From: a virus
Direction: 5' to 3' (one strand)
Length of the DNA stretch: 32,473 nucleotides
Virus record (IMG/VR): IMGVR_UViG_3300013093_000154
Coordinates: 1 to 32,473 of that record
Each line of letters begins with the position of its first letter. Positions within the stretch are counted from its first letter, which is position 1. Below are positions 24,021-26,003 of the stretch, piece after piece. The position numbers were made by a program, and so were the translations under genes. The notes below the pieces were generated by a model. The model worked only from the letters and a program-made list of their open reading frames with translations, was not told where the DNA came from and did no database searches.

Positions 24021-24058
24021 TTTTAGACCTGGCTGGATCAGTCATAACTATGCAATAT
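24010..24058 (+). promoter_or_regulatory. Perfect 10-bp inverted repeat spanning the gp46 stop and the GIY-YIG start
   Basis: ATATTGCATA (24010-24019) pairs exactly with TATGCAATAT (24049-24058), leaving a 29-base loop that can itself form a small bulged stem. The right arm ends inside the ATG at 24057-24059. In RNA this hairpin would hide the start codon until ribosomes ending gp46 open it, or until a transcript begins inside it. T4 homing endonuclease mRNAs are known to use hairpins for such control. No good Shine-Dalgarno precedes the ATG. Confidence 0.6.
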
Positions 24059-24485
24059 GACATGGTATTATAATGGTGAACCAGTAAATGAATTACCCGA
24101 AGATGCAATCGGATTCGTCTACTTGATTACTAATCTTACCAATGGCAAAATGTACGTGGGCAAAAAGCTCGCAAAGTTTGCTAAGACAACATATAAAGTA
24201 GTAAAATTAAAGAACGGCACTAAAAAACGCAAAAAAATTCGAAGTAAAATAGACTCAGACTGGCAACAATACTACGGCAGCTCTCCCAATCTCACAGAAG
24301 ATATCAACAAGCAAGGCACAGGCAATTTCAAACGCGAAATCTTATATTATTGTAAATCAAAAGCCGAATGCTCGTACATAGAAGCACGTGAACAATTTTC
24401 ACGGCGAGTACTGGAATCAGATGACTACTACAATGGTCATATTCAAGTACGTGTACATGGATCACACATAAAAAACAAAATTTAA
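24057..24485 (+). CDS. Compact GIY-YIG nuclease
   Basis: The 142-aa protein is almost only a GIY-YIG domain. GFVYLITNLTNGKMYVGKK at residues 23-41 is the GIY...YIG hairpin in VY/YVG form. It is followed by a Lys/Arg-rich insert (KLKNGTKKRKKIRSK), SDWQQYYGSS, a likely catalytic Glu in YIEAREQF, and YYNGH near the end. The family is found free-standing in many T4-like phages, as a homing endonuclease or a related DNA-cleaving enzyme. Unlike the two other GIY-YIG genes in this window it has no NUMOD3 DNA-binding repeats, so target choice, if any, must come from the basic insert. It is the last gene of the plus-strand cluster, 36 bases after gp46, and is followed by a long hairpin-rich region. 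Confidence 0.82.
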   Translation: MTWYYNGEPVNELPEDAIGFVYLITNLTNGKMYVGKKLAKFAKTTYKVVKLKNGTKKRKKIRSKIDSDWQQYYGSSPNLTEDINKQGTGNFKREILYYCKSKAECSYIEAREQFSRRVLESDDYYNGHIQVRVHGSHIKNKI

Positions 24486-24919
24486 CAGGCAACTTCAGCA
24501 GTTTTGACCAGCATCAGTTAATTTCGGATGCCCTAAACCTGGCCCACGTGGCACAGGGATGGAAGTCTTCGCGCTGCACGAAGCACTCAACTACTATCCT
24601 TAACAGGACGAAGATCGCTTTTAAGACCCGCGGTTTAGTTGTTTGAAAAAATTAAAAAGGCAAAAAGAGGGACAGTGAATTCCCAGGTTATTACGTAAGA
24701 TAACGTTTATGTAATAGCTACCGTTGTATATTAAGACGGAACGAGTAGGTACCGGACAACCGCCTACGCAAGATATGTAGTTTATATCCGATAGTTCTAA
24801 CGTTATGTGGTTTGTGCGAGCTCAGATGAAGCCCAACTTTTTTCTTAACCCTGTAGTGGGTTAAGTGTGGCTGTTGAGTCTAGATGAAGTATCTTATCGC
24901 TTCGCTCTACTTTCTACTA

Positions 24920-24962
24920 TTAAAATAAAAAAAATAATGTTGTGAGCGATAGCGAAACAACA
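24920..24962 (-). terminator. Leftward terminator after the homing endonuclease gene
   Basis: TGTTGT (24938-24943) pairs with ACAACA (24957-24962) across a 13-base loop. On the minus strand the stem is followed by TTATTTTTTTTATTTTA (24937 down to 24921). It ends the minus-strand unit that finishes at 24981. The stem is short, so strength is uncertain. Confidence 0.5.
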
Positions 24963-24980
24963 GATGTTCGTTAGAACATC
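24963..24980. terminator. Hairpin between convergent units
   Basis: GATGTTC and GAACATC pair over 7 bp around GTTA. It directly abuts the stop codon of the minus-strand gene at 24981. T-runs on both sides are poor, so it may act as a weak two-way terminator or as a 3'-end stabiliser, possibly in tandem with the adjoining 24938-24962 hairpin. Confidence 0.4.
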
Positions 24981-25601
24981 TTATAATGTAACTAACTTCT
25001 TTAACTGATATTCCTTCTGAGATTTGCTGTTAGCAATATTATGCTCTAGGGATTTGGGTTTGCCTTTATGTGTATTGCTAATCTTAGCTCTTGATTCAGA
25101 TGTTAAGAATTCGTCTGCTTTCTTGCCTTTATTATGTGGGATATGCCCTTTCATATTAGCTTTATGTGCATCGGATTTAGGAACACCTTTTGTACTGCAA
25201 CTTTGTTTAGCGCATGATTCGGCAGAACGTGGACCAGTTGATAGTCCTTTATTCCAAGGTACCCTTCCTTTAAGTTTAGATCCGACTTTAGCTTTTGTTT
25301 CTGCCGACAGATTTATAGACCCGTCGCCGCCGTCTGTTTTGTTGTTTAATATTCCTGTGCCTTGATCTTTGCGACCGTACCAATGAATCATTCTACGTTC
25401 TAGTGCCAGTGCTCCTAATTCTATTAAGTTAGCTTCGAGTATAACAATCTTGGTGATATCTTTTGGTATTCTAAAATGATGCTTACCCCAAGCTCTACTA
25501 CCTTGCCCTTTGCCAATGTAGTAAGGGGTATTATCTGATTTGCGTAAGTAAGCGTAGATGTAAAATCCAGGCGGCGTATGCGATTTGTTGTAAATATACA
25601 T
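24981..25601 (-). CDS. GIY-YIG homing endonuclease with NUMOD3 repeats
   Basis: With the ATG at 25601 the protein is 206 aa. This start is preceded by AAGGAG at a spacing of 7 bases, whereas the longer in-frame ATG at 25643 has no such site. The GIY-YIG domain begins [20 protein letters not shown], then GSRAWGKH with the likely catalytic Arg, a Glu-containing helix ([16 protein letters not shown]) and [12 protein letters not shown]. The second half holds NUMOD3-type DNA-binding repeats: [40 protein letters not shown] and [15 protein letters not shown]. Such proteins are free-standing homing endonucleases that cut an intron-less or gene-less allele. A second, related gene lies at 26933-27550. 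A late-promoter-like box is 60 bases upstream of the start. Confidence 0.88.
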
Positions 25602-25608
25602 GCTGATG

Positions 25609-25614
25609 CTCCTT
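25609..25614 (-). promoter_or_regulatory. Ribosome-binding site that decides the homing endonuclease start
   Basis: The minus strand reads AAGGAG, 7 bases before ATG 25601. It is one of the strongest Shine-Dalgarno sequences in the window and favours 25601 over 25643 as the start. Confidence 0.7.
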
Positions 25615-25661
25615 GAAAGCGTTAGAGTAGTTGGATACGTCAATATCGCGAACTACAACTT

Positions 25662-25669
25662 TATTTATT
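25662..25669 (-). promoter_or_regulatory. Late promoter-like box before the homing endonuclease gene
   Basis: The minus strand reads AATAAATA, overlapping the stop codon of the upstream DUF6614-like gene. It would give a leader of about 50 bases ahead of ATG 25601. T4 homing endonuclease genes also often have their own late promoters. AT-rich chance matches are possible. Confidence 0.4.
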
Positions 25670-26003
25670 CAAATACATCTGGAAAATCCCTATAGAGCGC
25701 ATGCTGGATTGTTGAACAATCCACAAATTGATTAAATGACTTGTGCTTAGTTTCGAGTTCTCCTTCTAATGGAGCAACACGTTTAAACGCTGCTTCCATT
25801 TGAGCCATATCACGAAACTCCATCATAATGTGCCACTCTGGCATGTCAGCTATACTGCGAAATCCCATCTTACAGCGTGTGATTCTAAATGAAATCATTT
25901 TGTGTTCGTCAACTAAGTGCGTAAGAAACGCTCGCATGTTAGCTACCCATTCTCGATCCGTGATGTCGCCTTCTTTGTTTGCCCAAATATGATATATGTC
26001 CAT
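25665..26003 (-). CDS. DUF6614-like small protein
   Basis: The 112-aa protein starts MDIYHIWANKEGDITDREW and ends HALYRDFPDVFE. Between these are MISFRITRCKMGF, PEWHIMMEFRDMAQMEAAFK and a short C-terminal helix. From memory this matches the bacterial DUF6614 family, which has the same start (MDIYHIW), a GEFHI-like strand and a LYRDFPD end, and probably folds as a dimeric alpha-beta barrel. No reaction is known for it. The ATG shares one base with the stop of the GNAT-like gene (TAATG), so it is coupled to it. Its close likeness to a bacterial family suggests capture from a host. Confidence 0.65.
   Translation of the reverse strand: MDIYHIWANKEGDITDREWVANMRAFLTHLVDEHKMISFRITRCKMGFRSIADMPEWHIMMEFRDMAQMEAAFKRVAPLEGELETKHKSFNQFVDCSTIQHALYRDFPDVFE

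What the first reader, a model, noticed from the sequence alone, without database searches (positions are those of the whole stretch)
24486..24980. 495-base gene-free block packed with stem-loops: possible new phage structured RNA
In a genome where gaps are usually under 60 bases, this block has no gene but at least ten stems, including a 13-bp stem with several G-U pairs (24686-24719), an 8-bp perfect hairpin (24844-24865) and a stem with an ACAA loop (24745-24767). The G-U pairs fit a plus-strand transcript. It follows a GIY-YIG nuclease gene and ends at hairpins next to the convergent gene. I could match it to no RNA class that I know by eye.
Basis: partly seen in the sequence, partly recalled or inferred. 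Interest (0 to 1): 0.72.

Follow-up and report, generated by a model that had tools for sequence, protein, structure and literature searches.

The report
Twin-word structured RNA of T4-like phages
The gene-free block makes a large folded RNA shared by about 200 T4-like phage contigs and by small chromosomal islands in bacteria; only its first third was known (as an RNA of unknown function), and it carries two copies of a short word that always change together, so it probably binds one target twice.

Summary
Block 24486-24980 encodes a conserved ~480-nt structured RNA. It is not wholly new: 24506-24644 is Rfam RF01718 (Polynucleobacter-1, function unknown; 110.5 bits, cut-off 37). The remaining ~340 nt lie outside Rfam yet are equally conserved: 146 of 206 loci match nearly full length. 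In 40 sequences a 69-pair model with two pseudoknots pairs in 96.7% of cells, 43 pairs with two-sided changes (0/500 shuffles). A second class keeps the 3' half but has a different 5' half.

Most striking, two 3' arms carry the same 8-nt word (window AGAUGAAG at 24824 and 24882) after CUC and UCU. The word differs between phages, yet both copies change together: 44 of 44 inferred changes fall on the same branch. No partner was found in the RNA, phage or host.

Homologues sit in ~7-kb chromosomal islands (20 of 186 genomes of one genus) behind a T4-late-type TAAATA box, beside DUF6641, tyrosine recombinases and a T4-type clamp-loader gene: probable satellites of T4-like phages. Best reading: a trans-acting, probably bivalent RNA; partner and function unproven.

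The parts
24057..24485 (+). SegE-type GIY-YIG endonuclease gene directly upstream; usual but not obligatory neighbour of the RNA
   Evidence: PF19835 6e-34; same-strand homologue upstream in 182 of 206 RNA loci, usually within 60 nt
24487..24980 (+). Whole RNA (5' boundary approximate), ending in two hairpins
   Evidence: nhmmer over 206 loci, 146 of them over nearly the whole model; covariation
24506..24644 (+). 5' domain = Rfam RF01718 Polynucleobacter-1
   Evidence: cmscan 110.5 bits, E 2.2e-23, model 1-141 of 141
24498..24577 (+). Long-range helix 24498-24501 with 24574-24577; its 5' strand lies outside the Rfam model
   Evidence: 3 of 4 pairs with two-sided changes, 96.3% paired; 24500-24575 significant
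24511..24531 (+). Hairpin 24511-24515 with 24527-24531
   Evidence: 99.5% paired, 4 of 5 pairs with two-sided changes
24588..24641 (+). Three-way element: helix 24588-24593 with 24636-24641, inner hairpins 24598-24607 and 24613-24635
   Evidence: 99.6-100% paired; 24590-24639, 24591-24638, 24592-24637, 24616-24632 significant
24687..24718 (+).
   Evidence: helices 8 and 9: all 9 pairs have two-sided changes
24701..24805 (+). Pseudoknot 1: loop 24701-24706 with 24800-24805
   Evidence: 6 bp formed in 40 of 40 sequences, 5 of 6 pairs with two-sided changes; 24704-24802 and 24705-24801 significant
24723..24760 (+). Pseudoknot 2: 24723-24727 with 24756-24760 (the 'ACAA loop')
   Evidence: 96% paired, 3 of 5 pairs with two-sided changes
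24739..24797 (+). Helix 24739-24742 with 24794-24797 enclosing hairpin 24747-24765
   Evidence: 99.4% paired; top-scoring covarying pair 24739-24797 GC/CG/UA/AU
24821..24831 (+). Twin word, copy 1: CUC + AGAUGAAG
   Evidence: identity covariation with copy 2
24844..24865 (+). 8-bp hairpin between the two words
   Evidence: 93.4% paired; 24847-24862 significant
24879..24889 (+). Twin word, copy 2: UCU + AGAUGAAG
24939..24961 (+). Terminal hairpin GUUGU-GAGCGAUAGCGA-AACAAC
   Evidence: the GAGC..GCGA-type motif follows copy 2 in 141 of 186 phage loci and 22 of 23 chromosomal loci, against 5% of random windows
24963..24980 (+). Last hairpin GAUGUUC-GUUA-GAACAUC
   Evidence: sequence; same arrangement in the relatives printed

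Best explanation
The block is the gene of a ~480-nt trans-acting non-coding RNA of T4-like phages. SHOWN: it is a conserved plus-strand RNA fold with a 5' domain (RF01718 in this class), a central domain with two pseudoknots, two 3' arms that each carry CUC or UCU plus an identical 8-nt word, and terminal hairpins. SHOWN: in phages it has no T4-late-type box upstream, so it is probably the 3' part of the gp46/GIY-YIG transcript; in chromosomal islands the same RNA sits behind its own TAAATA box. INFERRED: it is released by processing or termination and acts in trans. INFERRED: the two arms are identical binding sites for one partner (two molecules, or one dimer or paired target), which is why the word changes only in both copies at once; the constant CUC/UCU and G/A differences are all transitions, as if both copies could pair (with wobbles) to one strand ending GGG. 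INFERRED: the island version, with a different word and late expression, serves a satellite that exploits T4-like phages. Split of my confidence: conserved RNA of this extent 0.95; acts in trans 0.7; bivalent recognition 0.4.
For: RF01718 match. Full-length conservation over phage loci. Covariation: 27 significant pairs against a tree-aware null; 34 of 69 RNAalifold pairs with two-sided change; 96.7% of cells paired, 0/500 shuffles, slid controls 35-42%. Second class with another 5' half: no Rfam match in 16 loci, 69 pairs, 21 two-sided, 96.9% paired. Twin word: 24824=24882, 24828=24886 and 24830=24888 identical in 102 of 102, far above the null; word shared in 193 loci and quite different in distant ones, e.g. 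ACGAAATG, ATAGCAGA, ATGAAGAG; 44 of 44 changes at five positions on the same branch, against 66% for Watson-Crick pairs and 5% for columns 52 apart. Downstream gene convergent in many loci; TATAAATA within 150 nt after the RNA in 32 of 113 but upstream in 0 of 121. RNA without the GIY-YIG gene, behind a PDDEXK_15 gene instead. Chromosomal copies; TAAATA and DUF6641 in all 27; clamp-loader-like AAA protein (phrog_168, 5.8e-21) and integrases.
Against: No transcript data were available. No partner was found: no covarying column in the RNA, no clear excess of complements within the loci (20 seen, 13.6 expected) or in eight phage contigs, and no 14-nt complement in island-bearing host chromosomes other than the RNA itself. 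The total absence of one-sided changes would also fit copying between the two sites. 'Satellite' rests on gene content and a promoter-like box only. Being next to gp46/GIY-YIG leaves a 3'-UTR role open.
Confidence: 0.5

Rival explanations
1. The twin words are kept identical by DNA strand exchange or conversion between them (for example they are crossover sites of a site-specific recombinase, whose overlap sequences must match), not by a shared partner.
For: 44 of 44 changes hit both copies and none hit one; chromosomal islands carry tyrosine recombinases nearby; no nucleic-acid partner found.
Against: Flanking CUC/UCU and mostly G/A differences persist, so conversion would have to stop at exactly 7-8 nt; spacing varies (mostly 47-60) without helical phase; no integrase was seen next to the phage copies; some Watson-Crick pairs are equally strict.
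Confidence: 0.2
2. It is a cis-acting element: a 3'-UTR stabiliser/terminator of the gp46-GIY-YIG operon, or a leader of the next gene, as the 2010 table suggested (probably cis-regulatory).
For: It starts at the GIY-YIG stop codon in most loci and ends in terminator-like hairpins; PMC2864571 lists Polynucleobacter-1 as probably cis-regulatory.
Against: Upstream and downstream genes differ between loci, the downstream gene is often convergent or has its own TATAAATA box; in islands the RNA has its own box and other neighbours. Two pseudoknots and twin words exceed what a terminator needs.
Confidence: 0.2
3. It is an architectural RNA of the GOLLD/ROOL type that assembles into an RNA particle during infection; the repeated arms are assembly contacts.
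For: Large, ornate, multi-pseudoknot phage RNA; GOLLD and ROOL form homo-oligomers (PMC12286853, from its abstract); abundant large ncRNAs exist in phage ICP1 and its PLE satellites (PMC7567579).
Against: No similarity to GOLLD or ROOL models; identical words cannot pair with each other across molecules.
Confidence: 0.12
4. It is the ribozyme or guide part of a mobile element driven by the GIY-YIG nuclease (group I/II intron relic, HEARO/omega-RNA-like guide).
For: Same-strand SegE-type gene in 182 of 206 loci.
Against: No Rfam match to introns, HEARO or omega RNA even with permissive filters or in class II; the RNA persists without that gene, behind PDDEXK_15 genes or in chromosomal islands; the SegE family itself is common in isolate phages, in which no such RNA was found by DNA similarity.
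Confidence: 0.06

Closest known systems
Rfam RF01718 Polynucleobacter-1 RNA (Weinberg et al. 2010, PMC2864571)
   Same: 24506-24644 matches the whole 141-nt model at 110.5 bits; the chromosomal copies found here fit its founding members
   Different: The real RNA is about three times longer, includes a helix strand 5' of the model, two 3' pseudoknots, twin words and terminal hairpins; most relatives found here are in phage contigs; the cis-regulatory label is not supported
GOLLD and ROOL large phage RNAs
   Same: Large, ornate, phage-associated, function unknown
   Different: No Rfam match; no twin identical words known for them (own knowledge)
ICP1 and PLE non-coding RNAs (PMC7567579)
   Same: A lytic phage and its satellite both express abundant non-coding RNAs
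   Different: No sequence relation tested or claimed; here phage and island RNAs are homologous
Two-site RNA guides and sponges (for example CsrB-type decoys, C/D-box double guides; own knowledge)
   Same: Repeated short words presented by a folded RNA
   Different: Here the word itself varies between relatives while staying identical within each RNA; no known binding motif fits all words

Membership tests
RF01718 Polynucleobacter-1 | Covariance-model score above gathering cut-off over the whole model | tested here: met
   110.5 bits against 37, model 1-141
RF01718 Polynucleobacter-1 | Cis-regulatory position in a 5' UTR (2010 table, not part of the Rfam definition, which types it 'Gene; sRNA') | tested here: not met
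   In phages it follows the upstream gene, and downstream genes are often convergent or have their own late-type box
Group I / group II intron | Conserved catalytic core detectable by Rfam models | tested here: not met
   No match up to E = 5 with permissive filters
GOLLD / ROOL | Match to their Rfam models | tested here: not met
HEARO / omega RNA | Rfam match and a neighbouring IscB-type gene | tested here: not met
   No Rfam match; neighbour is PF19835 SegE GIY-YIG
tmRNA | tRNA-like domain and tag ORF | tested here: not met
   ARAGORN finds none in the window
Phage satellite (for the chromosomal copies) | Integrase, compact island, more than one copy in some genomes, patchy distribution | tested here: met
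   20 of 186 genomes, five with two copies; integrases and about 7-kb gene set
Phage satellite (for the chromosomal copies) | Induction and packaging by a helper phage | not testable with these tools
   Only indirect: T4-late-type TAAATA box in 27 of 27 and a T4-type clamp-loader-like gene

The most novel reading that the evidence does not exclude
A widespread family of phage and satellite RNAs works as a bivalent recognition device: a constant scaffold presents the same exchangeable 8-nt word twice, the word evolving by strictly concerted change to follow its target, and satellites carry a differently addressed copy switched on by the helper phage's late transcription.
Probability: 0.3. Interest if true: 0.85.

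Novelty: new variant of a known kind. Interest (0 to 1): 0.66.

Why it matters
An orphan Rfam motif is shown to be the 5' third of a much larger RNA that is common in uncultured T4-like phages and in chromosomal islands. The perfectly concerted twin word is an unusual evolutionary signature in an RNA and gives a direct, testable handle on its partner. If the islands are satellites, phage and parasite share one RNA, a concrete entry point into their conflict.

Tried and rejected
DNA similarity of the block and of both RNA classes to known phage records: nothing useful. Pattern scan of bacterial genome contigs with the RF01718 core: 81 hits, all chance by nhmmer. Regions after SegE genes in four isolate phages: no gap long enough for this RNA directly after the gene. 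Intron, HEARO, GOLLD, ROOL and tmRNA ideas: no match. A cis partner for the words: none. A trans partner: no enrichment in loci, eight phage contigs or host chromosomes. Copy 1 pairing with copy 2: excluded because the words are identical, not complementary, and distant words lose any partial pairing. DUF6641 in phage contigs: none found. tRNA-mimic and start/stop-codon readings of the word were considered by eye and dropped because they fit only some words. My twin-word finder requires CTC/TCT and at least 7 of 8 identity, so its count of 193 is not unbiased; the unbiased evidence is the alignment columns and parsimony. Exceptions seen: one mismatch in L319, and L042, L125 and L307 fit only loosely by eye.

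Full report
OBSERVATION. The block has no gene of its own and folds better than 100 shuffles, z = -3.05, and -3.48 for its 3' two thirds alone. Rfam identifies 24506-24644 (+) as RF01718, Polynucleobacter-1, at 110.5 bits against a cut-off of 37. The 2010 source lists that motif as probably an RNA, probably cis-regulatory, in Burkholderiales and fresh-water or estuary samples (PMC2864571).

EXTENT. A pattern from the RF01718 core found 29 IMG/VR stretches, and alignment showed that conservation runs on for some 240 nt past the Rfam model to the second word, with hairpins beyond. Two further scans, with a core and a 3' pattern, raised the set; nhmmer with the full-length alignment gives 206 loci at E <= 1e-3, 146 of them matching nearly the whole model. 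About fifty more match only the 3' part from about model position 228; many of them follow the same GIY-YIG gene but have another 5' half, with no Rfam match in 16 loci tested.

STRUCTURE. On 102 class-I sequences an own R-scape-like test (substitutions re-dealt along the tree, 30 null alignments) gives 27 pairs with E < 0.05, about 21 of them Watson-Crick. RNAalifold on 40 sequences gives 69 pairs, 34 with two-sided changes. A model of the same size with two pseudoknots added (24701-24706 with 24800-24805; 24723-24727 with 24756-24760) pairs in 96.7% of cells, with 43 two-sided pairs and none of 500 shuffles reaching it; partners slid by 1-3 columns pair in 35-42%. The structure was partly derived from the same alignment, so the slid control leans in its favour; the tree-aware test does not depend on it. 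The second class has its own fold: 27 sequences, 69 pairs, 21 two-sided, 96.9% paired.

TWIN WORD. Several of the strongest covarying column pairs are not complementary but identical: 24824/24882 (GG 68, AA 34), 24828/24886 (AA 52, GG 50), 24830/24888 (UU 77, AA 23, GG 2). They lie in two arms 52 columns apart that read CUC-word and UCU-word; the 8-nt word is AGAUGAAG in the window. In distant relatives the word is quite different (ACGAAATG, ATAGCAGA, ATGAAGAG, TGGTAATG) but still the same in both arms. Parsimony places 44 of 44 changes at five positions on the same branch in both copies; Watson-Crick pairs of the same RNA share 66% and columns 52 apart 5%. GUGAC-like sequence before both words also tends to change together (by eye). 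No column of the RNA covaries as a partner, and no partner stands out in the loci, in eight large phage contigs or in host chromosomes.

SURROUNDINGS. The upstream gene is a SegE-type GIY-YIG gene (PF19835), on the same strand in 182 of 206 loci, after an SbcC/gp46-like gene (phrog_77). It is not obligatory: in L016 and L068 a PDDEXK_15 gene takes its place, and others lack it. Downstream genes vary; many are convergent. TATAAATA, the T4 late-promoter word (own knowledge), is absent upstream of the RNA (0 of 121 within 150 nt, 0 of 115 in the next 300) and inside it (0 of 119), but lies within 150 nt after it in 32 of 113.

CHROMOSOMAL COPIES. RF01718 is found in 4 of 399 genomes of the order that contains Undibacterium, and in 20 of 186 of one genus with ~2-Mb genomes, consistent with Polynucleobacter; five of these carry two copies. 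All 27 loci have DUF6641 divergent and a TAAATA box just before the RNA; twin words are found in 23 of 27 by the finder, mostly AGCGAAAG, also AACAAAAG, ATCAAAAG, GGCGAAAG. The islands carry small and large tyrosine recombinases and an AAA protein like the T4 clamp loader (phrog_168). I read them as satellites of T4-like phages; helper dependence is not shown.

INTERPRETATION. That this is a large conserved RNA I hold near certain; that it extends to the terminal hairpins, very likely; that it acts in trans, likely; that its two arms bind one partner twice, the best single mechanism but unproven. Recombination between the words is the main rival. The RNA is a member of RF01718 by score, but the family as described covers only its 5' third.

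Noticed in passing
window 24981-25643 (-): Convergent second GIY-YIG-like homing endonuclease gene (phrog_15526 and phrog_314 matches; no Pfam match).
   Followed up: partly
L304-L307, L312-L334, L402-L405: About 7-kb chromosomal islands: DUF6641, the RNA, variable cargo, 188-aa tyrosine recombinase, clamp-loader-like AAA protein, 424-aa integrase; repeated 18-21 kb apart in two genomes. Genes around them include a C5 methylase (L308) and MotB/ZorB-like genes (L309).
   Followed up: partly
L364 6863-7268, L374 9791-10232, L379 11681-12075: Permuted tmRNA genes called by ARAGORN in large relatives, beside clusters of 20 or more tRNA genes.
   Followed up: no
L164, L197, L044, L059, L120, L049, L082, L081 and others: About 0.8-1.8 kb of extra DNA separates the GIY-YIG gene from the RNA; probable insertions of other genes.
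   Followed up: no
window 24597 and 24609: Perfect U:C / C:U switch between two columns (52 and 50 sequences), linked to two alternative loops of the inner hairpin; looks like a tertiary-contact swap.
   Followed up: no
downstream of the terminal hairpins in relatives (e.g. L003, L005, L019): T4-late-type TATAAATA boxes follow the terminal hairpins in many relatives and would serve the next gene.
   Followed up: partly
window 25665-26003 (-): DUF6614 protein; its homologues are the first downstream gene in many relatives.
   Followed up: no
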